Assembly (NCBI GenBank): GCA_003598025.1
Contig: QZKH01000004.1
Coordinates: 1 to 48,932, forward strand
DNA length: 48,932 nt
Source of the DNA: Candidatus Omnitrophota bacterium
GTDB taxonomy: Bacteria > Omnitrophota > Gorgyraeia > Gygaellales > Profunditerraquicolaceae
Direction of reading: 5' to 3'
Below are positions 1 through 25,100 of the stretch, one piece after another (the first letter of the stretch is position 1; each line of letters begins with the position of its first letter). Below the pieces are notes generated by a model. The model was not told the DNA's origin, made no database searches, and saw nothing but the letters and a program-made list of their open reading frames with translations. Position numbers and translations under genes: made by a program.

Positions 1-1190
1 ATAGACTCAAACATATATTTTGATAAGAGCGGCCAGCTTGATTACTTTACAGGTACAAATTATGTTAAGAATATTGATGGTAAGGGACAGTTTATAACTT
101 TAAATTCAACAGATAATGATGGTCAGAGGCGCATAGGTGGTTACAGATTCTCAGGAGTTCTTAAATTACAGCATAGCTTAGACAGCGAAAACAATGTTCG
201 TCTTGATGTCGCAAATATATATGATCCGGTTGCACAGCAGTATAAAGACCTTACAATTTATAATACTTATTATAGTACACTTGACGGTGTAAATATTCAG
301 AAAGCCGATATCAACACATTTTCAATAACTCCAAGGATTGATAATAAGGGTAAGACAATAACAGGTCAGGGAGATATACAGCTTACCATGGGTGGTATAC
401 CTGAAATGAATGCCCTGAATTCCGATAGGGGGGTATTTCAAACAGCGCTTAATTCTCCTTTTAGCGGCAGCCTCAAACAATTGATTAGAGAGCAAAGTAC
501 ATTGGTGACGGACAAAGGGTTTACTCTTGTTACTCCCGATGGGCTTGTTATCAATATTGATAAGAATGATCCGAGAGTAAAAGATTTAATCAAGAGGCTT
601 GATAAAAAAGCTATCTTGATAACATTAGATGATGGCACTCAAGTAGTTGCAAGCGAAGACTGGCTAAGCAGACCACGTTGGTGGAAACCTCATACTTGGG
701 GTGATTATAAAGGAGAAGCTGCTGATGGTGAAAGGGTATCATTGGATAATAGCCGTCTCATGGAGGCATATTTAGAATTAAGAAATGGCGGGCAAGGAGA
801 AATAGGTGAAGATTTAGATAAGCTTTTGCAGGGGGTGCCTGTAAAGGGGTTTATTGATGGGGTAGAGGTTATAGTAGATAGCGCAAGTTTAACCAGGACT
901 GCCGGCGCTGGCTTCTGGAATTTATCTCTTGACGACAAGGTATTTATTGATACCAGGGGAAATCAGTATTATATAGACGAAGATAGAGTAATAAAGGCCC
1001 CATGGCTTGGAAAAGATGAGCTCGCATCGTATGGATATAGAGGAGATGATATTTTAAATGAAAGTAGCAATGATTGGCAACTAATAGCAAGAGATGATTA
1101 TGGCGTGCCAAAAACAGTTTTTATAGATGGTAATCAGGCACAAGACTTAGTAGGTACTTATATTGACGATTTCCCTGATTTGTACGGCGC
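1..1190 (+). other. Beta-rich segment of the giant protein, family unknown
   Basis: The first ~395 residues in the window are rich in Asp, Asn, Gly and alternating hydrophobic residues. They include strand-like stretches such as GVLKLQHSLDSENNVRLDV, and later short FIDG/VFID segments (near 850, 940 and 1120) that look like repeated extracellular beta-hairpins. No catalytic motif is recognised. The segment precedes the Gly-rich hydrophobic region, an arrangement reminiscent of polymorphic secreted proteins (RHS or haemagglutinin type), but I cannot assign it to either. Confidence 0.4.
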
Positions 1191-4100
1191 ATGGAAAACA
1201 GCGACTAGGCAAAATATAGTTACAGGCATAGAGGGAACAGTTGATGGCGTATTTGCAGCGTGGACTGTGGTAGATGGGATTCTTATTATTGGTGGTGCGT
1301 TGACATCAGAAGTTGGTGTGGGTATCCCTGTTGCTGCTGGTGGCGTAGCTTTGGAAGGAGTAAAACAGGCATCTAGAGCAGGGATAACAAAAATATTGAC
1401 CGGGACCGGCAGGCAGATAGGGACTAAGTTAGCAGAGAGATATTTGTTTTCACAAGGTATAGGCAAAGGAAGTTTGTATTTAGGCGGTTATGTTCTAGGG
1501 CAGGTCGGATTAGCCAATGCTGTCTCTATAGGTTTTAGCGGTGATCCTTTGCCATTGAAGGATAATTTGCGTATTGGCTGGGGAGCCGTATTAACTAGAG
1601 GGCCTTCAGCAGGCCTATTAAGTGGGGCATTAAGAAGTTCTATCCCGCAATTAAAAACGCTTGCTCAGATACACCCTGTTCTTTATAATGCTGGGATTTT
1701 CGGTGCAGGAGCTGGCGTGGGTGTTACTTCGGATTATGTTGCTACCAGTTTAACAGGCCAGGAATATAGTTTTACGAGGGGCACTGCGGCTGCATTAACT
1801 GGCGGTTTAATCTTTACTGGCGGCAGTAAAATAGGAAGTTTAGGAGCTTTGAAGAGTGTAGGTTCTGGCTATAAATATGCCGCTTTAGGCGCGCTGACTG
1901 GTATAGCAAGTAATTATTCAGCATATAAATTAGCAAGTATAGGTGGCCAAAGTTATAACTATGATTGGCGGTCGCCAGTTATAAGTGGTTTGACCGGATT
2001 GGGAATTACTAGTCTGGGTGGTAAATATTTAAATAAATGGAATGGTATAAGCCTAAGCGAAGTGTCTAGTCAGCAGGAAATGCAGGCAATCAAGAATTTT
2101 GGCCGCGATTTATTAAGAAGGACAGTCTATATAGGTATACCTGGAACAGCGGCTTATAATTATATCAAATATGATCCCGCCGGATTAGTTTCGGAATACC
2201 TCTTGCCTTCCCAAAAAGATATGTTAATGAATGGGATTAAAATTGCTACAGTTTTAGGTATGACAGTAGGGTTAGGCGGCATAGGCAGAGATAATAGCCA
2301 GGGGATAAAGGCGTTATTCAGTAAGCAGAATATGGTTAATTTAAGTAAGGATTTAGGTAAATCTATTTGGTCTAAATCCGGAGCATATTGGGGAGGAACC
2401 ACTGCTTTTGTTTGGGGAGGAGATGCCGCGATAAGAAAATTTGATCTCGAACAGTATAGGCAAGCGCATACAGTAATAAGTATGGGATTATTAGCAGGCG
2501 GAATACTCGGGCCAGGAATAAAGAACTTCAAGTCTATATATTCACAAGCAGTGGGCAATGTCCATCCAATTATGTTAGCTTATCGCATTGCCAATACAAC
2601 AGCCCATATAATGCCATCTGTTACATTGATGATGGGCGTTATGCCTGAAGTTGGTAATGTGTTATCTAAATACAAGGGCAAGGGAGGCGTGTTGGATTAT
2701 ATAGGCAGGGAGATATTAGGGAATAGTTCTTTTGTAGAACTTAAACAACAAATGTTAAGTGGTTTAAAATCCCAGCTGGCTCAAAACCCAAATAATCCAG
2801 AAATATTAAAGCGAATAGAAGAAATTGAAGTAATGGATCCGGGTGGGCTAAAATTCAGGTCTTTGATCGGTATTGGTTCTGGCGCTGATAGCGTATGGCA
2901 GAGTTTATTTTTTGGCGCAACTATGTATTTTGTCGGGCCAGTATTACATAAAGGATTAATGAATATGCCAATATTGGGTCCATCCCAGAAATTCCTTGCT
3001 CAAAAGATGGGGGACCGCTTTATAAGCTTCGGAAGTTTGGCTGACAGAAAAGGAATTATTGGCGGGTTAGCCAAAGTCGCAGGCAGAGCACAGGATTTCA
3101 TATTTGAAGAGTATTTCAGGGAATGGATGTCAGGCAAAATTATACAATCTTTATTTATGAGTGCAGGTATTACAAGGAATAAAGTTTTTGGTGACGATGT
3201 GACAATTAAGGACGGTAGCCTACCGAATTTGGGTACAGAAGAAGGGAGAATAAAATACTCCCGTTTAATGGGTTACATGGAGTGGTTCCAGGAAGCATTT
3301 GATAATTTTGGTACAGGGAGAGCATATTCAAGAAAATATGTCCCTGCCAGCACAATGTATGATTGGTTAGGTAACGGCTTTGATGGTTCCGGAAGTTTAA
3401 GGCAGCGTTTGTATAGAGCCGCAGATAACAACGAAGAAATATTCTGGGATTCTGTTGATATGGCTTATGCGCGGGCAACTCGCCTGGATGTAGATAATTA
3501 TATTGATTCTTTGACTACAATGGGAAGAATCGATGATTCCGGTAATCATACATTTGATGGGATAAAAGCAGTTAGGGTGGGTAGAGATTTGGAGGTTAAG
3601 GGTTCAGTGCCTGTTTTTGCTGCTGATGGAGCAAAAGGCTTAACTAGCAGCAAGGTGAAGCACAAAGTTGATACTAGAACAGAAGAATTAAGGGGGCAGG
3701 GAGTTGCTCCTGTTGTTTGGGGAAGAACCTTTGATGGGCAGAGGATCTCCAGCCAGGAAGAATATGATAATGCAGTCTCTTCTGGCAGGAAAGTAGACTA
3801 TGTCCATTTTGAATATGTGGATAGAAATGCCAGCCAGACATTGGGGAGAAATGGCCTGGGTTATAGTGGTGTAGGCAGAAATGGAGAAAGAGTCACAGTG
3901 CTTGTTTACAACGGAGAACAATCTGTGCGTTTGCATGAATTAGGAGAGATGCGTCTAACTAGGCAGCAACAACTTATGCGGGTAGGTAGGCTTATACCAA
4001 GCTCTCCAGAGCTAAGACAAGCTTTGGGTACCATGACAGCACATAATATAACCGAGGAATTTCTTGGTTACGCAGGCCAAAGCAAAAATAGGGTTGCGCG

Positions 4101-7100
4101 GCCTTCAACAATTCCTGCAGCAGAAGCTTTAAGAATAGAGGGAGATGGTCATATCGTTTGGTTGGTTGATGCGAAAGGCAATCAGCTTGCTCAAGCAGAG
4201 ATTGAACCATTTAGAGATGGCATTGCTATAAGGCTTATGGAGGCAAAGGTCAGGGGTTTTGGATACGGGCAACAGCTTTTAGACAAACTGATGGAGAGGT
4301 ATAGGGTTATATATACAGGTAAGGATGGCGATCCAATCAGCGCTGATGCCCAGAGAATGATTTACCGTATGGCTGATAGCAGCCGCTATGCAGTTGAGGG
4401 GACAGGAGATTTTGTACGTAGGAGCCTTGCAGGTACACACAGGTTTTTAGATAAAAAACCAGCAGAGCATGTTAGGATTTCTTTAGCTCCTATGGGAGCA
4501 GTTCCTACTAATTTCAGGTGGGGACAGACTCCTAGAGAGAAACCAATTTCGATCGATATTAGTTTATGGACACAGAAGACCGGAAGAGTCTTCTTCCCTC
4601 GTCATACGTCAGTAAACGCTGATCAAACATATGCAAGTGATGGTTTGGTAGGAGAAGACATGTCTACACTGGAATCAAATCGAACTGTGGAAGTTCCGGC
4701 AGCACAGGCAGCTGAGGTTAATGCCAATAGCCCATATAAAATAGTCCGCGAGGCTTTTACCAAGCAGATCGGTCGCATTGATGATATGGTCGATGAACTG
4801 CGCGCCAGGCGCGAATTATTGCCGTCATTAGGTGGCGGAATTATAAAGACATTCCTGGGTTCCATGATGCTGAAGAATAGAATATCCAAGCTAAATGTAG
4901 TCAAGTCTTCATACGAGGATGCAATATCTGACTTAAATGAAGAATCTGCCAGCCAGCATCTTGTCGGTTGGTTAATGGGGAATCCTTTGATGTTCTCGGA
5001 AGATTTCCAGGAGGCTGCGAGGTTTAAACCTGAGGATTTTGTTGGAAGAAGGTCATGGGAAATAAGAGGTTCGCAATTTTTGAGTTATGCAGCTTCCGCT
5101 TTAAGAGGTTACGAGCTGAAAGAGAAAGAAGTAGAAAAATTGATAGGAGCGTTAAAGGGAAGAGTCGGTTCTGGAGTGATATCGCCGGAGAATGTCAAGT
5201 TTGCTTTTAGTAGGGCTTATGGCCTTTTATCTAGGCAAAGGATGTTTAATAAAGAGCAAGCATTAGGTATGATTGACACTTATGAAAGGGATTTGATGGC
5301 ACGAGGAGTAAACGTAGATAGTTTACGCCAGCAAGTCTTAGAAACAAAAGGATACTCTTTTGAACCTTTGGTAAAAATAATGAATCCATTATTACAGATG
5401 GCAGCAGAAAGGCGCAAAGAACAAGAGTTTGTAATAGGTGGTAAAACTTTGTTAGGCCAGAATGCGGGAATAATTCCGGTAGAAGTCGTTGATGGCGAAA
5501 CGCTTTCCAATACAGCAACGGGTGAAACAGTCAGTTCACAAGCGCAGCAAGATGGAGTTAAAATAAGCAGAACGGCAAATCATATGTATATACCTGACGA
5601 AAACGGAAATCTGTCAATCGGCTATGATTTAACCGGTGAATTTAATTTATGGTCAGGCAACCACGAGTTTTACCATCCTATACTTGCCAAACTTGCTAAT
5701 GGCGAGGGCAAGGTTGACTTGGATAAAGTCGCTCAGCTTCCGGATGCTGATAAGCAGAGAATCATGCGTTTACTCAGGAAGGTTTCAGAATTAACAGGAA
5801 TACGCGTTGAGGACCTAGATATATCTATGAGAGAGATGGGGGTAAATGAGCTTATTGATAGGACCATAAGTACCATGGATGCACTGGAAGCCTTAAAAAG
5901 CAATCCCGGATTAAGATTTCTGGACGGTGACATTTATTCCGATAGGCCAGAGTTTGGCTCGTTCTTTTATTATTTGCGTAATAAGGTATTAGGAGTAAGC
6001 ACTCGAAATGTAAATACGCTTATAAAGAGAGCCTCGGCTTTAAGCGATGAGGAGATGCTTGAACGGATATTTAATAATGATAGTTTTGCCAGGCAGTTTG
6101 CTTTATCAAGAAAAAAGACGGAAACTCCAATACAGCACCACCCAGGGTTAGCCACTCAACCTGCTATGTCAGCACCTACGGGTTCTGTGAATGATGATGG
6201 GAAAACTATGGGAGAAGACCTGTTGAAATCTCGTAAGGTAGAAAATTCTTCACCCGTAGTTTTACCACAAGGTAAGATTAGTTTACCTGGATTGCTACGA
6301 GCTGGTGAAGTCGCAACTTTTAACGTGCCAAACATAAGTTCGCCGATTACTAATGAAACCGGAGCGCGTGCTCCTCCGGTTGCTGTACCGGAGATTGGAA
6401 ATATCAACGCTATAACTACCCCTATCGAAGCTGCTAATATCCAGAATATACTTCCTACAACAATCGCTTTACCTATAAATAAAGCAGAGAAAGTCTTATT
6501 ACCTCATGTTTCTACCGAAAAAGAATTAACTGGCTGGAAGAAAGCTGTTACAAGTTTAGCCGGGCCGCTGGCAAGCCTTGGTATGGCAGCTGGTTTAGGG
6601 TACGTGGCTTATAAAGGTCTGCCAGTAAACAGTGTTACAGATTATTATGCAATAACTCTTGCTGCTATATCCGGCTTACAGGCTGTCGTTGATACAATGC
6701 CGCGGGAAGCTACTGTCAGCAGTGTGGGAGTGAGTAACAGCAGATATGCCCAGGCAGTAACTGCCTTGATAGCACCTGTTTTGTTTGCCCATGAAGGAGC
6801 GCATTATTTAGCTAACCGTTTGCTTGGTAACCCCGCAAGAATGCATTTGTTCATGAAGACAGATGCCGGATTAGATCCAGATGTAAAGTTAGCTAATGAT
6901 GGCTTGGCTGCGATTAGGGCAATAAGAGGTTTGGACCAGGAGAAAGTTTCTTCTCCTGTTAACCGATCAGAGATACTCGCCGCAGCATTGGGCGCTATAG
7001 CTAAGACAGAAGACATTCCTTCAGCAACTGAAGTCTCCTCACCGATAAAATTCCAGCAAGACACAGAAGATGGCCTGGAGATAACTGAGATTGTTGATAA

Positions 7101-10100
7101 GAGATATAGCACTGGTTTAATTACCCCGGATCAATATACATTCACAGTAATAAACCACGTGCAGAGATTGACGCAAGATAATATTGGTCTTAAGGAATTA
7201 ACCGGTTATACGCTGCATGGAACATCTGTTGTTAATTTACGCAACATAGCAAGAGAAGGCAAGCTTAAGACTCATCCAGGATTCTCGGGTGCTGAGGCAC
7301 CAGGAGTATTTGTTACCGTCGTAGATAGGAACACCAGACCAAGCCAGTTGTATTTAGGTAGAGGCAGGGATTACGGCTCAGTACCGGCATTATTAAGGAT
7401 CCGCCATCAGGATGTAATGGATTATTTTGCCAATAGAGGAATTGAAAAAGTATTCATACCCGGAGGCGCGAATGCTTCTCAATATACCATAGATATACCT
7501 GCCCAGTTTATAGATTATTATGATTTTACAAGGGACAAGTGGATACCTGTACAGAATCATCTGTTGGGTAACATGGATACCTATACTTTAGCAGGTTATG
7601 ATTATCAGGTTGAAGCTATTGAGGCTTTTGAGGGAGCCGGCCAGCAGGGTATAGCTGATAAGTTAAAGACCCTGCCTCCTTACGCAGAAAACAGCTATAA
7701 CAGAGTAAGGGCAAGATTACAGGAAACAGGCTTAAAGGGCGATAGAGTAGATATACTGGCTCTTGCTAAGACTCTTGAAGTAGTAGCCGGCAACCAGCAA
7801 AAACAGGCTGCTGAAGCTGTTTCATCTCCGATAGACGCAAATATATTTGATTATGCAAAGAAAGTCAGAGAGGTAGCTAATTTAAGAGAACAAGTGAGAG
7901 TTTCTGGCGCCTTGCTTGAGAGCTTAGAATCTCATCATAGGGATCCTGCGGAGATAGAGCGTACCAAGGAAGTTTTGGCTGATTTTTCAACGCAGTTAGC
8001 TGATGCAGAAGCTGTTCTTTTAGCTGAGGCTGTTCCGAATCTTTCTATAGATATGGCTTCGCTTTCACCGGTAACAGTTGAGCAGATAGCAGTATTAAAG
8101 TCACTTAGCAATGAATACCAACAGATAGTATCAGCAAAGCCTCAAGGCTGGCAGGAACAGGCTATAAATGTTACAGATTCATTGTTAGCTATCGTTGATC
8201 CTTGGATTACAAATAGTGACAACCCCGAACTTAATATTATAGGTGATAGCATAGGCACAGGCGGTGATCTTGCGGTAATCGATATACGCAACAAAGCAGC
8301 CGCACTTAAGGCAACCAGCGAGAATATGGGTAAGGCTGGCAGAGATACTAAGGATTATGAGTTTGCTCAACGTATGTTTGATGCTAGCGTAGAAGCGCTT
8401 AGTTCCGTATTGAACAAAACAGATGTATTATTAAATAGCCAAATATCTGTACCGCTCAAGATTCAAAATGATGGCAGAGTTGCTTTTGACCCTGCTTTTG
8501 TGACTAGAGTTTTAGTGGGTATTGCAGAAGCTACCCCGAATATTACAGGCGCATCAGTCAGCAGCCCGTTAATCAAAACTAATATTGCTTTGGATTTGCC
8601 ACAAACCCCAGCAGTCAATATCCAAGCCATACCTGCAGCTAAGGGAATTTCCTTAGACAGCCTTTTGGCATCAAGTGTCCCGGCTGAGTTAATAAAGACC
8701 CCAGTCATAGCTCCAATAGCAGTCAGCCCTATTGAAGAAGCGCCATTTAATCCTAATACTGCAGGTACATTAGGCTTTGGCATGGGCAAGACCCAGGCCT
8801 TACCTATAAATGTAGCAGGTGGTAGTGGTTCTGGAAATGGCGGCTCCGGGTTTGGCACAGGCTCAAACGGTTCTGGTAATGGCAATGGCAACGGCACAGG
8901 TACAGGTAATGGAGCCGGCGGCAGGCTCATAATAGAAGTAATGCCGGTTATACCTAAAGATTTGGGTTCGGTTGTAGGAGGCCTTTTAACCTCATCAGCC
9001 ATTGGAATGGCAGCGGATGCGAATAATCAGGACATGAGCACGTTCGGTGTCCAGATGCTTGGCCAGGCCGGTGGTATTAACGTGGCGGCTGCGAATCTCC
9101 CATTCGCAGGTCGTGGTAGTGAAATAAGCGGGAGAGACAATCAATATAGCAGCGCAATTAGTATCGTCAATGGTTTATCCAGAGATGATACAAGGTTTGC
9201 CCAAGGCTTGAATGCCGAAGGCAAAGGTTCAATAGTTGTAACAACAACTAAACAGGAACAAACGAATGCATCACCTGCAGCAAAAGATGTTGCAAACGTA
9301 ACAGGTTTTGGTAGCAAAACCAGTGGTTGGGCGAGTGCTACCTTAAAAGGTAAAGTAAGTTTAATAAAACCCGCATTAAATAACAGAATCCATGAATGGC
9401 TTCATGGATTATTCCTTATAAATCCAGTTGAAACCATAAGTGCTAGAGGTCCGCCATATCAAGTCACAAGGTCACAAGGTCACAAGGTCACAAATAATGT
9501 AAATTCCGCTTTAATCTCACCTATTGAGTTAGGAGCAGTGGATTTTGCTGCTTCGTCCGCTATTCAAGATATTAACAGGGAATCAACAGATAGATTAGTT
9601 CGGCCGCAGATTCCTTCCGTGGCAGGAGAAGATGCGGCTATTAACCCTCGTTACGCTCAGGATAATCCCGAGCGCAGTCGAGGGATTGTTGTTAATGAGG
9701 GCTCTTTGACGAGAGCCCCCCTCCAGGGAATGACCCCTCTTGCTGGAGCCCTCGTAACAACTACACCCCAAGTCACAAGGACACAAGGACACAAGAACAC
9801 AAAATTATTAACCAAGCCGCTGTCTGTTCCTACCGTGGCAGGTGAAACAGAAAAAGCGGCATTGTTGTTATCAGAGGCTGTAGAGCCCCATAACCTCCAG
9901 GGGACTGACCCCTCTGTGGCCTCTGATACAACTGTAACAGGAGGTGCAAAATGGTTCAGCTCAATTTTAACGAGATTGAATTTGACCACCTTGTTGAGTT
10001 CATCAAAGATAGGACAGTATTTGCAGCAGCTAGGCAGAACATTACAGGCCATATGCGCTTATTCCTCATCTTCGAAGATAATGGCAACATCTACACCCGT

Positions 10101-13100
10101 AACGGTAGAGCAGACAGCTGGGAACAGCTATATGGCGAGGATGCAAGCATCATCGCAGGTAAGATCGAAGCAGCAAAACATAACCACATCCCGGTATACA
10201 GAATCAACGGCTCGCATAATTAATGGTGGTTCGGCAGAAGCCAATGAAGAACTCGCCACAGGAGGTTTACGAGCCGTTGCTTCTTCCCCTATACCGTTAT
10301 TTAAGGATCAATATTCTCAAGGAGATCTTATTGATCCTCTGTATTGGGGGACAATTGAAAGATTTGTTTTACCGCTTCTGGATAGAGCTAAGCAGGGCAG
10401 GATTTCTTCTCAAGAGATAAAAGATACAGCAGCGCAGGCTGTAAATACTCTTCATGACCTTTTAGCAGGAAGGACCGAAGAAGAGGGCGAGCGCCAGAAA
10501 TTAGCCAAAGCAAGAGATTCTATCATTGCTGATATTCAAAATGGCTCTGACCAGCAATCGTTTGCAAAGGTAATGGCTGCTTTTATAGGTGAACAGGCTA
10601 AAGCAAACGGTAATGGAGGGTACGCCAATGTTTATTTCCCGAGAGATATGGCTCTGTGTTTCCCTGCAGACGCTGTTGTAGATTTGCTCAATGACGATAT
10701 GCCTAGCGCAGGGCTCTATTATATAAGCAGAAATAATTTTGCATATTATTCATGGATGAGCAGCACAATAGATTCATTAAATCATACCTCTCATGGCACA
10801 AAAGAACTATTAGAAGGTTTTATCAGAGCCATAAAGGAAAAGATGGAGAGCGATGCCGGATTTAAGGCAGCGATTAATAAGATAAAAGAAGAATTAGATG
10901 CATTAGGCTATGGGAAAATGAAAAAAGTGCGCTTCATCGATTCCGGTTTTAAGACATTCCCTCTGATGATGCAGGCACTTTTTGGTATATTCTACCCGCA
11001 CATTGAAACCAAAGGCTTAGTATTAGCTAGTTCGGTTCCAAATTTCTTACCTCAACTGGATAAGAAAGATTGGCGCCAGAAAGTCCGAGCTGCTATTGAA
11101 TCCAATCCTTCATTAGCAAAGCACGCTGTTCCTAATCTTGGTACAATGGAAAGCGCAGAAGATTTCTTTAAGCATCCATTTAAATATGACGGCGGCATGG
11201 TTCCTACTTCTGCGGCAGACCAGTTATTGTCATTCTGGTATCAGTTTGCTTTTGTGGCAGGTGCCATATTCTACGACAGGTTGGTAAAAGGATTAATTGA
11301 TGACTTGGAGAAGCATGGCGTTGAAGAAGAACAGGCAAAAGAATTAGCCCACAACGCTGTTAAGGATACCTTAGGTGTAGTAGATATTGAAGATGAGCAA
11401 ACCGGTGTAGAAACTGCGGTATTAGCCGTGTCTACAACCGAAGATGATAGTGAAGAAAGTACGGCTGATGATTTAGTAGCCCAGGTTGAAGCAAAATTAG
11501 CAGAAGAGGTGCCTGGGTTTAGCCTCTCAGAGGACACCAAAGAAGATTTGGCTGGTTTGGCTAAGGATAAAGCCACGGCAGATTCTACTATTGTTAAGGC
11601 AGAAAAGGCCAGGGATGATAAAAAAGACGATGATCAGAACAAAAAGCAAAGGTCGTTGTTAGCTTATATTGGCAAGATATTAAGGAATAAATATTTCAGA
11701 GTAATTGCCATAACCGTTCTCTTATTAGTAATCTTCCTTAAATCATGCCTGCCAATGACAGTAGATAGAAATAATGGTAAGGCTACCGTAGAACCTAAGG
11801 CACCACCTGCGGTTGTATCAGTTTTACCTGAACCTGTTACGCCTGTCCAGGTAACACGCACAGTCCCTATTTCTTATGAAGATAAGGTTGATGAATACGG
11901 ACATGTGTATCATTATGATCCGATAAGTGGAAGATATTATACGGATATCGATGCCACATGGACAAGCAAGAACCCTGCTAAATTTACCACTGGAGGTATT
12001 GCCAGGGGTTCCAGAAACGCTGGCGTGGGAAATGAATACCCTGCGTTGTATTTTGATGGTGTAAATCAGGTGGTGAACGATACGGCGAATATTGATAATA
12101 ATTCGGTTCCTCCGCAGTATATCACTCATGTTGGAAACAGATTTTATGTTGGCGAGGTTTTACCAAGCACAAAGACAGAAACCGTTATTGAAGAAGGTAA
12201 TGCCCCATCTTCAGAAGAACCGTCAGTAATCCCGCCATCCGAACCTCAGCCGGAAGATGGCACAACAAATACAAATCCTGAGACTGATTCGGAAACACCA
12301 GTTCATGAGAATACCAATAATTATTTATTACCTATATTATTAGCCGGTGCAGGCGCTGCACTTCTTGGGTTGGCTGCTATACGTAGGGTATTTAAGAATA
12401 AATCTGCTCCAAAGGCAGCTGAAAAAGGCCAAGAAGAAGCTGCAGCCAAAGGACCAGCTGTGACTTCTACAACTGCAGCTACAGCTGATTCAGCCTCAAC
12501 AGATGATTCCGCAAAAGAGTCCCCGGTTACAACCGCAGCCGAAGGCGATATTACCAGTGAAGAAGCCGCTGAAGAAGAAGCCATAAAAGCAGAACAGGCA
12601 GCAATTAAGGCTGTTGCCGATAGAGAGTTAGCCGAAGAAAGAGCTATGCAGGATGCGCTTGAAGCAGGCCCTGTAAGCTTGCCAAAAGCCAATGTTCCTA
12701 ACGCCGTTAAGAAAAGTTTAGATAAGATTAGGAGAGCTAGGACAGAGGAAGAAGTAGAAAACGCCAGAAAAGCAGCATTGCAGTATATTAACGGCAGAAA
12801 AGGACAGGGAGTAAGCGCAAAGAATAAAGCTTTGACTGAGGCAGTGGTTAACGAGGAAGCAGATAACGCCATTTTAAGATTAAGGGCTAAAGCCAACGGT
12901 ATAAAGACCAGGGCTGAAGAAGCAAAGGCAAATGCCGCCATATCTGAAATAGCAAATAGAGCCAGGGATTTTGCAGCAGCAATAAGCATCGATGAGCTCA
13001 TTAGATTGCATACTGAAGCCATAGAAGCAGTAGGGGCAGCTTACTTAAGAGGTGATATTGATGAGGCAACAAGAAGCAACCTCTTAGCAATGCTTAAAAA

Positions 13101-16100
13101 TGAAAAGAAGGCCGTTGAGAAATCATTAAAGCAGGAATTAAAAGATAAGAAGGCTGCCGAAGAAACAACGACTGCCAAACAGCCGGAAGAGGAAGCCGTA
13201 GAGCCTCAAGAACAGAAATCCGCAGAAGAAATAGCTAAGATTAAGAAAGCAGCTGCCAAGAGGCAGAAGAAAGCCCAAAAACAGGAAATAAACAACTGGA
13301 TCAATGAGCTGAATAATTTTGAACCCGAAGTAGTCAATGATGAAAACAGACCTGAGTTACAGGCTGAAATAGATGATGTCCGTAGCGTAGCCTTAGCTGC
13401 TATAGAAGAAACAAGCTTAAGCGCGGAAGATAAAGCTCAGTTACAGGAATCAGTAGAGGATGCTTATGCTCGCGCACAGGAAAGGTTAAATAGCGTAGAT
13501 TTGGTATATGCTTCAGATGCATCAAGTGAGCCGTTCAATGGTATTAATTTAGGCCAGGTAGCAGCAGAGCAGGGCCAACACGAAGAAGAAACAGCCCCTG
13601 GAGCCGGAAACAATAGCCAGAAGAAAAACATTGGAAAAGCAATTTCTGCCTTAGAGGAAGTAGTCAATACCGAAGAATTAGAGGAAACTGTTGCAGGGAT
13701 AATGCAAGATATAGACGGGTCAACTTTAAAGGATAACACCAAGGATGCATTATTAAATAAATTACAGAGAGCTTATACTGCTGCTCAAGAAAGAATTAGG
13801 CAGTCAGCTGTTGATGAAGCTAATGCTAAGGCAGAAGCAGCCAAGGCCCAACAGGAGGCGATGGAAGAAGAAGCCAGAGAAGACAGAGCCCTTAGAAGAG
13901 CAGTAGAGCTAGATGTTGAAAAGAACATCTCACTTTTTGCCGCTGCAGAAAACATAGCCGAAGTAAATAATTTAGCTGTTGATGTTGAAAATGAAATTAG
14001 TAATTCCGGGCTATCGGGACAAGCAAAAGATAAATTAATGGCCAAGCTAGAAAAAGCCAAAGCCAAGGCAATAGCAAGGTTAGAATATGAGGCAAGGAAA
14101 GCTTTAGAAGAAGCCAATCCGCTATTATCAATCTTGCCTAGAGAGCAGGCAGAAGCACTTTTGAATTTAAAGGATAGGTTATCCGATAGCAGGGAGGCTG
14201 TAGAAGATGCATTAGTCGAAGCCCAAAGAGGCAATGATGAAGTATCAAGATTGGCAGAGGCGCAAGAAATAATAGCTGCAGAAAGAGCCTTAAGGCAGCA
14301 TGAAGCCGAAGTTTCTCAGGCTCCAGTTGTAAAGGCAGGACAGCCAAGAGGCTTATTCGGTTGGGTCAAGAGAATGTTTGGCTTTAAGGGTAGCTCCAGC
14401 CCGATAAGAGAAGATAAGCAAGATGGGGCGTCGTCACCGGTAAAATTAGCCAAAGATACAGCTATAACATACAGTCATGGAACCTCAAGCCCTATCGAAG
14501 TCAATTTTGACGACAAGGTTGATGAACAAGAAGCAAAGGTTATCAAAGGCCTGCTTGCCAGGGACGGATTCCTTACCGAAACGATAAGAAGGATATTCAC
14601 TGTTATGAGAGCCCAAGAAGATATTAGCTTTGTCTACGTAAAGAAGCATGAGCGTGGCAGCCAGAAGCAGGTTTATTATGTGGAAGTTCACACAAAACAA
14701 GAAGAAACATTTAGTTTCGCCCTTAAGAAAGAACTAAGGCCGGGCGGCTTTAGGGAAGAAGAGATTAAGAGGTTGATTGATTTAAGCGCGCGCGCTTCGG
14801 TAACTCCCAGATTCGGAATTTATATTGGAGTAGAACAGTCAGACATAGAAGGCGAATTACTTGAGTATAAAGTTTATAGTGAGGAATTCATTGACGGCGT
14901 AACCGCAGCCCACAGGATTGTAAGGGATGGTATTACTGGAGACGTTATCAGGGATATAATTAAAACATGGATGACTATTGTTGTTATGTTAAGCAAGATG
15001 AATGGTAAAGGCGCTTATTATACGGTTATGGATATGCAGCGCCAGAACATACTCTTTAGGATTAAAGACAAAGAAATAAGAGGGCCTCCTGTTGTTGTAG
15101 ATATCGGGCTTGTAATTAAAACCAGCCCTTACGCTATCTTTACAGAATTATTCAGGCATTATAATTATGATTATCAAGATGCTATTAACATTATAGCCTT
15201 AGCTATAGTAGAAGTTTTAGGCGTAACACACGCAAGAGAATTCTTTAGCAGCATAACCCACCATATCAATAATAGAAAAGCCCATGCTATCACTGCCCAG
15301 GATGTTCTTATTAAGAAGGCATTAGAAGGTATTATAACCTCTCTTAGCCAAACCGATTCTTCAGAAGAGCAGTCATCCAGCCCGATTACAGAAACTCAGC
15401 ATGAAAAACTCGTAGCTTTATATCAGAATTTAATAGCCGAACGTGAAATGCCTATAGATTGGCCCAGGGGCTCGATATATAGAAGGACAATCGCAGAGCA
15501 TTTTAGGTATAGTTTAGTTGACAATGAGCATGCGCAATTTTCTACTGCAGTTGTATTGATCAAAAGCGGCATAAGTGTTTATGAGGTATTTGAAAACTGG
15601 AAGATATTTATTAATGGTATCAAAGATAGTGAAGTAACCGGTACTTATGATTGTTATGCCTGTGTTGGTTATGCAGTATCTGCTTTAGATAATAGTGGCA
15701 ATAGGGTTTTGGTGCTTGGCCATGCAAGGCCGAAAGATTTTGCAAAAGCGATAAATCATGATATAGAGCAAGTTGCGAAGGTTGCGAGAGGCAAAATCAC
15801 AGTAGTTGTTTCTTATAACGAAGCAAATAAAGGTAATCCAAATGTTGGTGCTGAAGAGCTGTTCGAAAACTTAAACGCAAGTGAAAATATAGATTTACAT
15901 GTCCTTCCAAGAGCAAAAGATACGGTTGCTGCATTAATTGCTACAGGCGCAGGTGTAAGCCATATAGTTGTGCCTGGGGATTTGCATAATTCTTCAGCAC
16001 CTAAGGTTGAGGCTTACGGTAAAGTTGCTATAGCAGAGACAGTATTATTTAATATTTCTTCTTCGCCGGTTAAGCAAATAAAAATACAGGTGAAAGTCCA

Positions 16101-19100
16101 GACAGCTTGGGAAATCATGAAGGCCAAGGTCAGTTTAAGCAGGATTACCGATAATAGCCCAGCTACAAAATATTCGTTGAATGTTTATAGAAGCAATAGG
16201 CCTCAGGCATATGCAGTTAGAGACATAAAGAGGAATATCGTTGAGGTGAATTTGTCTACGGGGTTAATAGATATGTTAGATGAAGCTGAAATTGCTTTTG
16301 TTATTGGCCACGAGATGTACCATGCCTTGACATCAGCTAATGAGGGTTTATTGGTTAAAATATATAGTGTATTAAAAACTATATTGTCGTCTGGTTACCG
16401 CAGAGGGTTAATAGCAGATGAATTTAGCGCAGACATATTTAGTTTCAATTTAACAATCCATCCATATGGAGAGATAAAGGCAGCTTATGCGCCAGAAGCA
16501 GTCTTAGGGATATTCGAAAAGGCAAAGACGGTTAAGACACCTATTTTCCATGATATTCTTAATCCCCATCCGCCGGTTGAAAAAAGAGCCCAGATACTTA
16601 GGGCATTAGCAGGGCTGCCGGAAAGTGAAACAAGAGGAAGTGTTGTTACCGAGCATGAAACTAAACAGTCAACCATAACAAGAAGGGACATCCTTTTAGA
16701 CATATTAGGCGGGCTGCTGTTTGTTTCTGCTGTAGGACATATGGTCGGGCCATGTTTTAGAAGCAATAACGAGCCTGAACAGCCAACCCGTTTGACTGTT
16801 GCTGTTGAACCTGAGCCTTCGGCAGAGTTCGTATATGACCCCAGCAGGTATTATAGTCTGTGGTATGCATATGGCCAGGATGAAAGCGCGTTCCTCGATT
16901 TTGGCAAGAGAGACAGCTTGCCAGCTGCTATAAAGGATGAATTATTCGGTGGAAATAGGACAGGTAAATATCTTTTGAATGAATTGTATTATGTTGTGGT
17001 GTTTGCGTTATTTGCTGACGTTGATCCAATTTTTGCTCTTGCTCACTATATTAAAGAAGGCCGTGCAGATTTCGGCATGAACTTTGCTTTTGCTAATACT
17101 GGAGACGGATCATTACACCAAGATTTCTGGGAGAAGACAGTACAGCCTCGGTTCAGAGAGATTTATGGAGAAGAGATATCCTATGGATTCTCTAATTGGG
17201 AGCAAATGCTTTATGATCCTTGGATAGGGCCCTATGTCTACAGAAGCTTGTTAGAAGATAAATTAATTGGTTACGCAGAAGAATTGGCAGGCAAGGGGAA
17301 CAAATTCAAGATTATAACCAATTGCCAGATATTAGAGGAAGCAGCTAAGACCTTGCAGCTTTATCAGGGCTGGGGTAGCGTAAGAACGAAAGGAAGTAGT
17401 GTTAATTATACCAGCAGAAATTCATCATATAGATATGAATACGGATATTCTATTTTGGCAATTATGTTGTTATTGCAGATGCCAGAAAACAAAGCTGTTA
17501 TAGATGGTGTTATCGAGAAAGCCAAGCAGAATACAATGAGTTTTAGGTCAGAATTCAACTCCGGATTTTCCACTATATTCGGAATTGATGTTAACAAATT
17601 AGCCTCTAGCCCGATTAAAGAATCAGGAGAAGCTTCTTCGCCAATATCTCGTGAAGAAGCAATCGAGGTCAGATTGTCTGAATTAGTTGAATTAAAGATT
17701 ACGCCTCTATTCAGGGATTCCAAAAGATCCCGCATGTTAAACAAATTGGTGGCTATTGCTGCAACAGATATTTTAGACAGAGTTCTAGATGAATTTGAAG
17801 TTACTCTGGATGATATAGAGATAGCTTACAAATTGCAGGTTATGTTGAATAATATAGGAATAGGAGATTTTAAGGTCGTCAAGCCCACCATAAAACACAG
17901 GCCTTATTTTGTCGAATATAAATCAGGAGCATCGTCCCCTATTAAACTCGATGAATTAAGCGGAGAGCACCGTCAGGCAGTACTTGAGTTGTTTACCCAA
18001 AAGTTCATCGCCGCTGCCACAGAAGATCGTTCCAGCGTTCCTGCCAGAGAAGCTGCCAAGCAGCTCTTTGATACAATGTGGGAGCAGGAAGATTTTGTTT
18101 CTGAAAATAAAACAGCTATAAGTGATGAATTAATAGATAAAGTATTTACCTTAGATACTTACAACAGGGCGCAGCAGGCAAAAATAACCAGGGAATTTAT
18201 GGCAGCGCTTAAGACTGTTGTTTTTGCAGAAGGCACACCAATAAGAGAAGGCGCAGAAAATGTATTTGAGGAGATGTGGGGTAATTGGGAATTTAACGCT
18301 TCAGAGGAACTTAAAGCAGAATTAAAAGCAGATTTTGTAATTGATGTAGTCGGCCTTGACGCCCTAAGGGAAGAGGCGCGAAATCAGGACTATTATTTAT
18401 ACCAGATGATCGCAGCAGGCAAAGGCACATATATAGGTAAGATATTTAAGGCGATAGGCTGGAATGTCCCTGTTTGTTACAATGATGCACACGGGCTCAT
18501 TCTCATCGGAGATATCAGAGAATATGAGTCAGGTAAAGGCGGATTAAGCCATGGTTCATGCCCTGAGTGTTTATTTGATCATCTGCTAAGCATTAAAAAG
18601 GACTTAATAAGATCCGGACATTCAAAGGGTTTCAGCGAGGAAGATATTGCAGAATTAAATGAGCTCTTGCATAAGATTACCGAGCAGTTAAGGATTACAA
18701 AAGCCGCTATTCAAATACCAGTTGCAATAATTGCAGAAGGCGAAGCTTCAAGCCCCGTAGGGCCGGATAATGCTTATTTCTATCTTGCTTTATTAGAGAT
18801 GTTACCGGGTATGATTATGTCCGGAATTAGGGCAGAAGAGGAAGCGCAGGCTGCAGAGTATAATTATAATTTAAGCTTACTGCTTGATTTATTAATTGAA
18901 TTTTATTCTTTAAGAGATTTCGGAGTAGCAGTATTTGGTAATTTAACCATGACTTTAGGTACACAATCTACCGTGATTATTATTTCCTCCAGCCCGATCA
19001 GAATCCTTGTGGTTGACGATGAAGAACCTCTTAGGGAATTTATGGGCACGACTTTAAAAAGAGGTTTTAGAGCTATGGTTGAGGATGTTGTTGTTGCCAA

Positions 19101-22100
19101 AGAAGGCAGAGAGGCGCTTGATTTGTTTGTGGCTGCAAGAAATGAAAACAGACCGTTTAATTTGATTGTTACTGATGACAGCATGCGCGGGGAATATGAA
19201 GAAGAACTTATGAATGGACATGAATTAGCGCGCGCTGTTAAAGAGGTCAGCCCGACAACACCAATTATAATGGTTAGCGTGCAGACGGTTGATGAACGCG
19301 GGCCTGATTACTATCTTGCGGAAAAAATAATAGATAGATTCCTTAGAAAGTCACCCGATTTTTATGATGATTTGTTAGTTATAGCTAAAGAACTGATTGG
19401 CGTTTCTCTCCAAAGTGAAACTAGTCACGCCTCAGACGAAGAGGCATCCAGCAGCCCGATTTCGCATAATCAATACAGGGTTTTGGTTGTTGATGACCAT
19501 GCTGATACTTTGATGATGCTGCCTGTAATGTTAAAAGGCATGGAGGATGATTTAAAGGTTAGATTTGAAGTAATTACTGCAAGTAATGGTATATCGGCTT
19601 TAAGTAAATTCAAGGAAGCATTAACTCAAGGCGGGGTAGATTTTATAATTACCGATATCGGGTTACCGGATATAAGCGGTAACGAACTCACAGCCAGAAT
19701 CAAATCTGAGGCACCTGTTTATGTTATCAAGATTACTGCTTACGAGGAAGACGCAGCCTTAGGCCAAATGGATGATTTTATCCAGAAGCCATTCAGGTTC
19801 TCCAAGCTTGAAGAAGCCGTAAGGAAGGCTATAGAAGCAGTAAATGAGAGAGGCGCTTCAAGCCCGATTGATAAAAAGGCGGCCTATGATAGATATGATA
19901 AAATACGTGGCAAGATACGTACGTATGAGCGTAAAGTTACTGAAAAGAGCGGATTAATTGATGATGCTGCTGTAGGATTAAGTGAGGCGATAGCAGGATT
20001 AGAGACAGTTATAGAATCGGCTTTTGAGAGGATAAACAGTTCTCTGCGCGAGAATTCTTCTTTAAATATATTTGATATTATGGAAGACTTAGGTGTAGAG
20101 GGTGAGAATATCTATTCAGTTCAAACTTTAGATAAGATTTATCAGCATATCGAAGATGCTCCAGATGTTGCATTCACCAATACAAATTACCGATACACAA
20201 TTCTTAACGATCTAAAAGAAATAGCTCCTGTGTTCTGGAAGAGGGCGGAGAAAGTAGCCAAGCTTAATAAGAGGCAAGAAGCTTTTGAAAGCATAGCTGC
20301 AGAATACTTACCATCAAGAAGCGAATTATCATTCTATACTATAATCTCAAAGTTTAGGAGAATTATTAAAGATAGGAAATATGTCTTAACTGCCAGGGAG
20401 CGTTTGGATTTGTTAATTTCGTTATTAAGAGATGAAGTAAGAGATGAAGTAAGAGATGATATAGAAAAGATATTTGCAGATGCCCAGGAATATTTAAAAC
20501 AGAGTGCAGGAACTATGAAAACGATGAGAGGGTGGGCTAACTTAATCGAGGAAGTTAGGATGGTTACAGCTGATAAGATAAAACAAGCTATAAAGACCAA
20601 GCTTCCGAGTCTTTTCTCGCACCAGGATATCATTTATATTATCCTTCTTACCATTTTAGAAAGAAATAGTGAACTTACTGACAAAACTATATTGGGTGTT
20701 ATAAAAGCCAATAATATTGAAGATATAGTTACAGATGGTGTTTTAAGAGACTACGGTTTATTGAATACAAAACGTGATGTAAATAGTCGGCTTATTAGAG
20801 TGCTTGATGCAGTATTACCAAAGATAACTCGAAAAGAATATTTTTATCATAGAGTATTACCAGCTGTTGGCGTGGCGTTAGTAGCTGTCGTTGCTGGAGT
20901 AGTCGCTTTCTTATTATTGCCTATGAAGGGAGCATATGCGGCTACCACAAGCGGACAAGCTTATTTACCTCTATATAACTTTGGCTCTGATGTTTCTGAT
21001 TTTGGTTATGGTATGCCCGCTCCTGAAACTATCACCGACTTTACTCAATTTGAAGATTATTTAAACACTTGGGCACAGCAGCAGTTAGTTACGTTAGCTC
21101 CGGAGGTTGCAGAAGCTGAAGATGCAGCTCCAGCTGTTGATGCAACTATATCCGGCAATGCTACAGAGCCTGCGAACGTTAAATACACGGTAGTTTCAGG
21201 TGATAATCTCTCTAAGATTGCGAAGAGGCATTTGGGTAAAGCAAGCCTTTGGCCGCAGATATATGCAGCTAATAAAAAGGTAATCGGCAATAATCCTGAT
21301 TTAATTATGCCAGGGCAGGAGCTTACTATAGAAAATATAGGTCACAAAGTCACAAAGTCACAAAGTCACAGTGAAGAAGCTCCGGCTAATGCAGCTCCAG
21401 TAACGACAGATAGGACTGAGGCGGTAGCGTCGGTTAAAGTAGAACCGCAGCCTGCGCAGGATGCAGAGCCGGTAGTAGCAGCAACTCAGCCTCAAGTAAC
21501 TCCAGAGCCGGTTGCGGTTGATAGAGAAGAAGATCATAGTAAAGACGCAGTAGCCCAACAGGAAATAAGGGCTCCTCCTGCAGGTTTCACAGCTGAAAGC
21601 CTCTTAGCAAAGATCCTATTCTCTGATCCGCGCATTAAAGCTGATACAAAAGGTAACTATGCAGTTCCCGAAGGCCTTGCCGCCGCAGTAATCGCCGAAC
21701 ACCTCAAAGATGCATTAAATTTAGAATATTACGAAGTCCCGGCAAATATAGCCGGCAGGCTATATTTTGAGAAAGTCGCTAAAGGAATACAAGCTCAATA
21801 TCCAGGCTCAGCAGTTGTCGAAGTGCACCTTAATTCAGATGAATATATCGGTTTATTCTATCATAACGCAAATGGTGATACCCGCTTGTTAACAGTCCAG
21901 GAAGGAAGAGTTGTTGACCTTCCTTGGAGCGCTAACGTTTCCGATATCTTAAAGAAAGATAATGTAGCTTTACTGGAATTTGGTTCAGCGGCAAAATTAC
22001 CTAAACTTACCACAGAGCAATTTAATGATCAGGTTGAACAAGCAAGAAAGTTGGTTGACTATTACAAAACGGAAGTTTTAGGCTTGGATGAGAAAACGGA

Positions 22101-25100
22101 AGTGGTTTTGGCTGCCGGACACGGCGGAAGGAATTATGATACTTCATGTGCACAGAGGCATAAATTGTTCAAGATAGTCAGAAGTACAGGCGGACCGGTT
22201 GAAGTAACCGCAGAAAGAGCAGGAGAAATAAAGAATATCGCTGAAGGTAATGTGGCAGATACAGAAGAAGAGCCGGTTGTTGAACAGAAGCCTCTGGTCG
22301 TTGTTGAACCTTTACCTGTACCTGCTCCTGCAAAGCCCGTAGAGGCAGCAGCTACTGAGGCATCTACAACAGAGGCTACGGCTGAAAGACCAGCAGTAGG
22401 GATAGATAGAGAGGATTACGTTGAAGATAAGGCACGATTAAGTGTATTCGAGTTAAAACAAGCCAGAGAGGTCAAATCAGATAAGATTGAACCGGTCTTA
22501 ATAAATATCGATTCCATCCCCATAGCTATAAGAGACCTTATTAATTTAGGTGCCTCTAATCTTTATGAGGGAAACTATGAAGAAGCGGTATCTCAATTAA
22601 CCAAGGCAATTGTTATATCGCCGGAATATTCACAGGCTTATTATTTAAGAGGAATTGCTCTTTTTGCTACTAATCAGTTAGACGCCGCGATCGGGGATTT
22701 GGAAAATGCGCTTAGGTTTAATCCAACGCCATATATTAAGAAAACAGTAGAAATAAACTTGCCGATTTTGAAAGATTTAATGGCAATACCAGAAACTGAA
22801 TCTACAATTCAAGAAGGTATGGTGGTTTCCTTCGTGTTTAATTCAGGAGTGAACAAAGAGCTTGTCGAAGGAGATGTTTCTGGCGATTTAGAAAATAGGC
22901 TTACACATGGAAGTTTGGCAGCGCGTGTATTAAGAAATGTTTCTCCGGATGTGGAAATTGTTTCTATATGCGTTGAGGATAACGGTAGGAAATTTGATTA
23001 TAAGTTAACCGAAGGGTTGTTTAAGGTTTTGATTTATATGCGGCAACATCCGGAAGTAAGAGCTGGGGTGGTTAATTTCAGCGCTGGGAATAATGTTCCA
23101 GATCCTTTTCAACAGGCAATAATAAGAGAATTGCATAGTAGAGGAGTGGTGATTGTTGCTTCTGTAGGTAATGATAATAGTATGGAGATGACTTATCCTG
23201 CTGCTTTTGATGAGGTTGTTGCTGTTGCTGCGGTAGATAGGTTGAATAACAAAGCTGAATATTCAAACTATGGTAGATATGTAGATATTTGTGCTCTTGG
23301 AGATATCCAGGGAATTTATAACGGCTATTACCTTAAAGCGCAAGGAACTTCAGTAGCTGCGCCTCGTGTTGCTGCTCTAATTGTCCAGATGTTGCAAGCT
23401 AATCCAGAATTAACTCCCCAGCAAGCTTTTAGAATTATTAGAGATACAGCAGTACCTATAGACGACAAGCACTTCAGGGAAAATTTGTTAGGTTCAGGCG
23501 TAGTTGATCCTAATAGGGCTCTAGCTAAAGCAGGAGATTTTGATAATAACGTAAATAGAGAGAACACATTTCCCATAAATCAAGAGTCTATGTGTCCCAG
23601 ATTAGATGTAGAAAAATATTTTATAGGCTTAGTCAATAACCAGACAAACGACAGTTTTGCAGAACCAGCTAACTCAACAATAAGTACCCATGGAAGAAGC
23701 TTTAGCGAATTAGTTAATATCTTGCAAGATCCTTGGTCGCGGCAGTTCAAGGATAGCGCATGTATTTCGGCCATATCCGAACTTACTAAATATAACGATC
23801 ATAGAGTAGTAGAAGTGCTTAGTAGCATTTTGTTAGAAAAGGATTACGACTGGGATCTAGGTACTAGATATGCAATTATAGATGCATTAGGTAAGTCTAA
23901 CGATCCGCGCGCAATAAGTGTTTTACTCAAGAAAGTGAACAGTGAATTTGATGGCATATGTGCCGCGTCGATATGTGCCTTAGGTAATTTGATAAACGAT
24001 GAAAAATGCAATGCTGAATTTATGAGATTGGCAATAGACAATTTTGATTTATTTTCTAGAATTCTGGAGAAAAGAACATCTCCTTCTATAAGAACAGAGG
24101 TGACTGAAGAAAATTTGGTAAGAATATTAGATGCTTTAAGGTGGTCTCCAAAAGGTATTAATGAGGAAGTGTTGTATCTTATTGCGAAAAAAGATTGGGG
24201 AAGAATCGTTGAAGTAGGAAAACCAGCAGTTGAATACTTGATTAGAGAATTAGCCAATGAATATAGTCTAGGAATTTGGGAGGATGTTGCCGCTACGCTC
24301 AGTAAAATAGGTGATAATAGAGCAGTGGAGCCTATTAGTAAATTATTAATTAGTTCTAACTTAAAAGGTAAATTTAGTTTACAAATAGCCATAATTAAAG
24401 CTTTAGGTGACTTCAAGGATTCGCGTGCCATTGATTCTTTAATTGGAATCCTTCAAATCTATAAATATCAACCAGACGTAAATCCTTATATATATCCGGG
24501 GGTAGTACGTGCTGTGCACGTAGATTATAAAGTTCATATAGCAGCTATAGAAGCCCTGAGTAACTTTAATAATGAGCGAGTTATTAAAATCCTTACTACC
24601 ATTTTAAACAATACCCAGAAAAAAGTTGACTCTTTTGATGCCTATAGGCGTGAAGCAGCAGCTTTGGCTCTAGGAAATATTAGAAATGATTCTGCTATTA
24701 ATTCGCTCTTGAAAGCAGTAGAGAACAAGGATGAGGAATTCTTTGTACGAACAGCCGCTATTCAGGCTTTGGGTAAGATAGATAATGATAGTGTGCTTGA
24801 GGCGCTTAAATTGATTACTGAAGATAAAAATGAAGATTTCCATGTAAAAGAAGAAGCAAGAAGAGTAATTGAATTATTCAAAAAAAGAACTATTAGGTTG
24901 CAGCATGACATTAATGAGAATAGCTCGCATCTCGATACTTTTATAGTTACTAATAATTATGCAGAAGCTATCAGTTTGGCAGAAAAATATGCTGAAGACG
25001 GTCGAAGATTATTATTTGAAGGTAGGGAGAAAGAATCAAAAGCAAAATATGAATTAGCTGCTGAGTGGTTTATAGCTGCAGAATCGTTAATGGATAGAGA

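What the first reader, a model, noticed from the sequence alone, without database searches (positions are those of the whole stretch)
9463..9932. Intergenic-type repeat island translated as protein: duplicated unit of 8-bp array, VAGE segment and REP-like palindrome
Two parallel units occur: array 9463 -> RPQIPSVAGEDAA -> palindrome 9688-9761, and array 9772 -> KPLSVPTVAGETEKAA -> palindrome 9864-9932. Both palindromes share GTTGTTA arms and a CTCCAGGG(G)AxTGACCCCTCT core, the type usually found between genes. A further hairpin lies at 9645-9684. Such elements landing in a coding region without breaking 16,000 codons suggests strong selection for the open frame, or elements adapted to lack stops.
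Basis: partly seen in the sequence, partly recalled or inferred. Interest (0 to 1): 0.72.

Follow-up and report, generated by a model that had tools for sequence, protein, structure and literature searches.

The report
Hidden gene nested inside giant gene
Inside an enormous bacterial gene lies a second, small, conserved gene written in a shifted reading frame and preceded by a folded RNA leader, so the same DNA seems to carry three messages at once.

Summary
Each palindrome is the second hairpin of a two-hairpin structured RNA element. The second copy ends in a Shine-Dalgarno sequence and the ATG of a 90-codon gene (9951-10223), which lies out of frame inside the giant ORF. The ORF spans the whole 48,932-bp contig and the relatives are Candidatus Omnitrophota.

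The small gene's family has no Pfam, NCBIfam or PDB relative. It occurs in 72 of 384 phylum genomes. Of 91 copies, 65 are nested in the same relative frame inside a long ORF. Among the 26 others, 21 have an MraZ-type motif upstream. Substitutions between nested copies fall on third positions of the small frame, yet the giant frame never acquires a stop: 0 seen in 53 nested copies, against 39 to 148 expected; 19 free copies have 58, against 59 to 66 expected. The leader covaries strongly (24 of 31 pairs show two-sided changes), has no Rfam match, and all 63 strong hits lie inside long ORFs.

I read this as a deeply conserved nested gene, probably translated from its own start on the giant mRNA under control of the leader. 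The function of the small protein is unknown.

The parts
1..48930 (+). giant host ORF (frame 1), open at both contig ends, at least 16,310 codons; Pfam: M48 peptidase, response regulator, LysM, TPR, subtilase S8, HEAT, guanylate kinase-like, HAD
   Evidence: contig C4 is 48,932 bp
9463..9493 (+). octanucleotide array 1 (GTCACAAG), dispersed simple repeat, not part of the conserved cassette
9583..9788 (+). leader RNA copy 1 (no gene of its own); hairpin A about 9602-9639, hairpin B about 9687-9762
   Evidence: cmsearch 92 bits, fold z -3.61
9645..9684 (+). extra hairpin inserted between hairpins A and B of leader copy 1; insert of about 45 nt (counted by eye), a multiple of 3, stop-free
   Evidence: alignment A2, fold; one weak further match in genome
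9772..9802 (+). octanucleotide array 2
9796..9953 (+). leader RNA copy 2: hairpin A 9816-9860, hairpin B 9864-9932 with conserved CCUCCAGGG apical part and CUGACCCC side
   Evidence: cmsearch 126 bits, covariation, fold z -3.73
9939..9944 (+). Shine-Dalgarno AGGAGG of the nested gene
   Evidence: sequence; conserved in relatives
9951..10223 (+). nested gene, 90 aa, ATG to TAA; giant frame = nested frame +1

Best explanation
The island is the structured leader (in two copies) and the translation start of a small protein-coding gene nested out of frame inside a giant gene. SHOWN: the small gene belongs to an old Omnitrophota family under amino-acid selection; it has SD+ATG and a covarying two-hairpin leader; the giant frame through both is kept free of stops, so the DNA serves as giant-frame codons, RNA structure and small-gene codons. 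INFERRED: the leader folds on the giant mRNA, ribosomes start anew at the internal SD and make a separate folded 90-aa protein, while ribosomes from upstream read through in the giant frame. The conserved CCUCC of hairpin B can pair with the SD, so the leader probably holds the start closed until a ligand, a partner or a ribosome translating the giant frame opens it; that would tie small-protein output to the giant mRNA. The stretch is then a sequence-tolerant linker of the giant protein. GUESS: the small protein is a cytoplasmic accessory of the giant protein; its paralogue between mraZ and rsmH suggests an envelope or division link.
For: Small ORF: 50-73% identity in six relatives' loci, same relative frame in each. 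72 of 384 phylum genomes. 65 of 91 copies nested in one and the same frame, 26 with 1-8 stops in that frame, none in between. Stops in the giant frame: 0 in 53 nested copies versus 147.9 (synonymous draws) or 39.3 (codon permutation) expected; 19 free copies 58 versus 66.1 or 59.1; the other frame not depleted (424 versus 331.5 in nested copies). Substitutions in close nested pairs concentrate at small-frame position 3, e.g. 4/2/19 and 6/2/29; small-frame identity .98 and .91 versus giant-frame .76 and .69. Leader: 24 of 31 pairs with two-sided change, 112 such cells versus 37.9 shuffled, 0 of 500 shuffles; sliding destroys it; G-U 82 versus A-C 27, as expected of the + strand RNA. 43 of 76 leader hits are followed by an ORF; all 43 match the family, all in one frame, 42 with an SD. 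In six giant ORFs (about 314 kb) the only SD+ATG out-of-frame ORF of 60 aa or more is this gene, save one 65-aa ORF in G040. Nest lies between collinear homologous blocks of giants. AF2 pLDDT 87.6 and 88.7.
Against: No expression data of any kind. 'Nested' copies are open in the giant frame by definition, so the zero is partly definitional; the informative facts are the clean split and its size. 33 of 76 leader hits have no small ORF after them (at least one is cut by a contig end), so the RNA may have another job. Only 25 of 53 nested copies have the core within 230 nt, and distant families lack leader-model hits. SD sequestration rests on complementarity only: 37 of 43 leaders with a gene hold CCUCC, 39 of 43 hold AGGAG/GGAGG before the ATG; both are near-invariant, so covariation cannot test it. 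312 of 384 phylum genomes had no match and were not examined for assembly gaps. No promoter evidence (at chance).
Confidence: 0.85

Rival explanations
1. REP/MITE-like mobile palindromes inserted into the giant gene and were tolerated because they lack stops.
For: Palindromic arms, tandem duplication, up to several leaders per locus; the hairpin inserted in leader 1 and the 8-bp arrays do behave like insertions.
Against: No copies outside the giant ORF in the own genome; all 63 leader hits above 40 bits lie in long ORFs; whenever an ORF follows a leader it is the same gene family (43 of 43).
Confidence: 0.05
2. The small frame is not started at its own ATG: ribosomes of the giant frame shift into it (programmed frameshift) and end at its stop, making a truncated giant with this domain as C-terminus.
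For: Fixed relative frame in all 65 nested copies; hairpins can stimulate frameshifting (general knowledge).
Against: SD before the start in 42 of 43 leader-gene pairs; the small-frame ORF is open only about 8 codons upstream of the ATG in the window (98 codons stop to stop for 90 aa); the hairpins lie upstream of the start, not downstream of a slip site; free copies have their own start.
Confidence: 0.08
3. The giant ORF is not one gene; it is several genes whose spacers happen to be open, and the small gene is an ordinary operon gene.
For: Leader plus SD plus gene looks like a normal operon start; giant-frame amino acids are poorly conserved here.
Against: Zero stops in 53 nested copies against 39-148 expected; the ORFs matched at these sites in relatives reach 12,627, 42,913 and 57,756 codons; free copies of the same family carry stops at the expected rate; peptides of a giant ORF have been reported in one Omnitrophota species (PMC10066038, passage).
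Confidence: 0.04
4. The conserved thing is the giant-frame protein; the 90-aa ORF is a by-product.
For: Giant frame matches relatives at roughly 20-36% here.
Against: Small frame matches the same loci at 50-73%; position-3 bias; the family exists without an overlapping frame after mraZ; the leader core is read in two different giant-frame phases (45 and 21 of 76, 10 unassigned).
Confidence: 0.02

Closest known systems
comS nested out of frame in srfA (Bacillus subtilis)
   Same: small gene, same strand, out of frame, inside a larger gene (named as such in PMC12350097, passage)
   Different: here a different protein family, a covarying two-hairpin leader, conservation across several families of a phylum, host ORFs of up to 57,756 codons
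Omnitrophota giant ORFs (Seymour et al. 2023, PMC10066038, passages)
   Same: host gene is of this kind: ORFs over 20 kb with few annotated domains
   Different: no nested gene or structured RNA is mentioned in the passages seen; 'overlap' occurs 0 times in the main text
Translation-controlling leader RNAs with an SD-sequestering platform (riboswitch-like; recalled class)
   Same: hairpins before SD+ATG, conserved loop sequences, anti-SD-like CCUCC
   Different: no Rfam family matches; signal unknown; lies inside another ORF rather than in a 5' UTR
Overprinted overlapping genes of E. coli and Pseudomonas (PMC4683798, listing and start of abstract; olg1/olg2 named)
   Same: same-DNA dual coding in bacteria
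   Different: the E. coli case is titled as of recent origin; this one is spread over several families and has free paralogues

Membership tests
out-of-frame nested gene | complete ORF inside another gene in a different frame | tested here: met
out-of-frame nested gene | amino-acid-level selection in the nested frame | tested here: met
out-of-frame nested gene | host frame also maintained | tested here: met
out-of-frame nested gene | both proteins made | not testable with these tools
   needs proteomics or ribosome profiling
cis-regulatory structured leader RNA | conserved structure with covariation on the coding strand | tested here: met
cis-regulatory structured leader RNA | immediately upstream of a translation start | tested here: met
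   43 of 76 leader hits; 33 are not
cis-regulatory structured leader RNA | changes expression on a signal | not testable with these tools
   no experiment
known Rfam family | match above gathering score | tested here: not met
   permissive scan
REP / RAYT-associated palindrome | many dispersed extragenic copies in the genome | tested here: not met
REP / RAYT-associated palindrome | REP-associated tyrosine transposase in the genome | not tested
   not searched
Pfam / NCBIfam / PHROGs / PDB family for the small protein | significant profile match | tested here: not met
   (best Pfam hit E 0.0013, in 1 of 54 members)
known fold for the small protein | clear structural match | tested here: inconclusive
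   best VIA Z 6.6 (rmsd 3.6, 68 aligned), no Foldseek E below 0.09

The most novel reading that the evidence does not exclude
A phylum-wide gene-within-a-gene system: giant genes of Omnitrophota carry an internal translation station, namely a new RNA family plus a nested gene, whose small product is made only when the giant mRNA exists (and perhaps only when ribosomes open the leader). It would be a built-in partner or checkpoint of giant-protein synthesis, related to a division-cluster gene.
Probability: 0.35. Interest if true: 0.9.

Novelty: new variant of a known kind. Interest (0 to 1): 0.78.

Why it matters
It gives sequence-level evidence that giant ORFs are maintained as one open frame: a well-conserved independent gene sits in them and never puts a stop into the giant frame, although free copies of the same family do. 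It adds a candidate RNA family and an undescribed protein family, and an unusually widespread case of triple-use DNA in bacteria. Annotation pipelines that drop ORFs inside larger genes would miss it.

Tried and rejected
REP/MITE reading: rejected, no other copies. Known RNA: no Rfam match (one search gave only hits far below the gathering scores). Known protein: none; fold searches inconclusive. A free copy of the small gene in the own division cluster: absent, mraZ ends at 1321 and the rsmH ORF starts at 1351 of L204 (the L204 mraZ is judged by sequence likeness, not by HMM). Promoter or terminator near the nested start: at chance level. Realigning the leader (A3) gave a worse helix alignment and was not used. 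Further nested genes in the window: the same-strand scan gave only one other SD-preceded ORF, 47 codons with TTG, not pursued. Pfam scan of the region right after the nest: nothing. Literature on nested or overlapping genes in Omnitrophota: 0 papers for 'Omnitrophota'+'overlapping genes' and +'nested gene' in the held library; other searches gave nothing on it in their listings; a 2023 preprint on giant genes that I recall is not held.

Full report
WHERE. The window is the whole of contig C4 of a 1.69-Mb, 10-contig genome. One frame is open from end to end. Relatives of the small gene found in a named collection carry Omnitrophota/Omnitrophica titles in 22 of 24 loci; the other two are a 'bacterium' bin and a contig filed under Woesearchaeota. 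The window's own record is not named, so 'Omnitrophota' is inferred. The giant ORF bears M48, response-regulator, LysM, TPR, S8, HEAT, HAD and guanylate-kinase-like domains downstream of the nest.

OBSERVATION. The REP reading fails: the core occurs nowhere else in the genome, and a covariance model finds only the two window copies there. The octanucleotide array is a separate dispersed simple repeat found in and between ORFs. On the sense strand it has no stop in any frame, which follows from its sequence.

THE NESTED GENE. Directly after unit 2 come AGGAGG and ATG at 9951, opening a 90-codon ORF to 10223 in another frame. Of nine relatives' loci brought in by the giant-frame search, tblastn finds the small ORF in seven: six over nearly its whole length at 50-73% identity, and two partial copies at 38-44% in L038, which runs off its contig end. 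The giant frame matches the same DNA more weakly. A profile search of 384 phylum genomes gives 72 genomes and 91 matches. I examined all 91: 65 lie in an ORF of at least 400 codons in frame +1 relative to the small gene (38 of 39 in the own family, 9 of 9 in the rest of the own order, 18 of 43 in the rest of the class); 26 have 1-8 stops in that frame; none is in between. Of the 26, 21 have an MraZ-type motif upstream (motif recalled; MraZ and RsmH confirmed by Pfam on either side in the two loci tested). One of the 26, the own-family exception, is a domain inside a 978-codon ORF of its own frame. One nested copy (G004) has a stop in the small frame while the giant frame is still open. Three genomes (G188, G272, G337) hold both an mraZ-linked copy and a nested copy; G174, G200 and G258 hold a nested copy and a free copy in another or unknown setting. 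In the own genome nothing lies between mraZ and rsmH.

SELECTION ON BOTH FRAMES. One search used the 72 distinct copies fetched by then (one of them, L035, is not among the 91; L112, the 978-codon case, was dropped; copies fetched later were not added). The 53 nested ones have 0 stops in the giant frame, where synonymous draws expect 147.9 and within-gene synonymous permutation 39.3; the 19 free ones have 58 against 66.1 and 59.1. The remaining frame is not depleted in nested copies (424 against 331.5). Nested status is defined by openness, so the test is of the split rather than of the zero itself. In close pairs of nested copies substitutions fall on small-frame position 3, i.e. giant-frame position 2. 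So the small frame is conserved as protein, and the giant frame here is conserved mainly as an absence of stops.

THE LEADER. Many nested copies share upstream elements; 25 of 53 have the core within 230 nt. In a 26-row alignment chosen from these (two rows are the window's own copies), 31 pairs of a two-hairpin model are 86.6% paired, 24 have two-sided changes, 112 cells against 37.9 in shuffles, 0 of 500 shuffles as high, and sliding partners drops the score from 0.439 to 0.128 or less. G-U exceeds A-C 82 to 27, as expected of the + strand RNA. Rfam has no match. The model finds the leader in 37 of 79 family genomes. Of 76 distinct hits in 100 loci searched, 75 lie in ORFs of 400 codons or more and all 63 above 40 bits do; the exception is a 25-bit hit. 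43 are followed by an ORF; all 43 match the family, all in the same relative frame, 42 with an SD. 33 have none, as in window unit 1. The leader core is read by the giant frame in two phases (45 and 21; 10 unassigned), so its giant-frame peptide is not what is conserved.

SYNTENY AND AGE. In four giants with a known upstream stop the nest lies 5,262, 6,853, 8,808 and 6,020 codons in, and homologous blocks before and after it are in the same order in the giants compared, although few blocks match. A tree of 83 copies needs two label changes between nested and free against 17.4 in shuffles; 18 of the 19 free copies form one supported clade and the nineteenth (L107) is a long branch. Few columns make the deep forks weak. 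In six giant ORFs this gene is the only SD+ATG out-of-frame ORF of 60 aa or more, except a 65-aa ORF in G040.

PROTEIN. AlphaFold2 gives a confident small beta-sheet-plus-helix model. No family or clear fold match.

MECHANISM. Shown: dual coding constraint and a conserved leader. Inferred: internal initiation at the SD. Proposed: the CCUCC of hairpin B holds the SD until something opens it; passage of giant-frame ribosomes is the natural opener. Not shown: expression, regulation, function.

KNOWN VERSUS NEW. Giant ORFs of Omnitrophota are known (PMC10066038, passages; PMC11573180, passages). Out-of-frame nested genes are known but considered rare in bacteria, comS in srfA being a well-documented case (PMC12350097, passages). 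I found no paper joining the two (held library only). Hence a new variant of a known kind, with a candidate new RNA family and an undescribed protein family.

Noticed in passing
L082 and L089 (division cluster of other Omnitrophota families): The small family also exists as an ordinary gene between mraZ and rsmH, function unknown; absent there in the window's genome.
   Followed up: partly
window 9645-9684: A roughly 45-nt hairpin insert (GAGCGCAGTCGAGGG type) lies between the two hairpins of leader copy 1, a multiple of 3 and stop-free; only one weak further match in the genome.
   Followed up: partly
window 21341-21370; own genome C2, C3, C6: GTCACAAG-type octanucleotide arrays are dispersed through the genome, in and between ORFs.
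   Followed up: partly
window 8782-9160: Gly/Ser/Asn-rich linker followed by a conserved stretch (giant frame, GGINVAAANLPFAGRGS) shared with giants of several relatives.
   Followed up: no
L091, L092, L096, L102, L104 (nested copies of other families): Nested copies without the leader model often have a terminator-like hairpin just before the SD (seen by eye).
   Followed up: no
G243:C23:79881-80126 (L112): The small domain also occurs in frame inside a separate 978-codon ORF.
   Followed up: no
L126: A contig filed as Woesearchaeota carries three leader hits and a nested gene; probably a mis-binned Omnitrophota contig.
   Followed up: no
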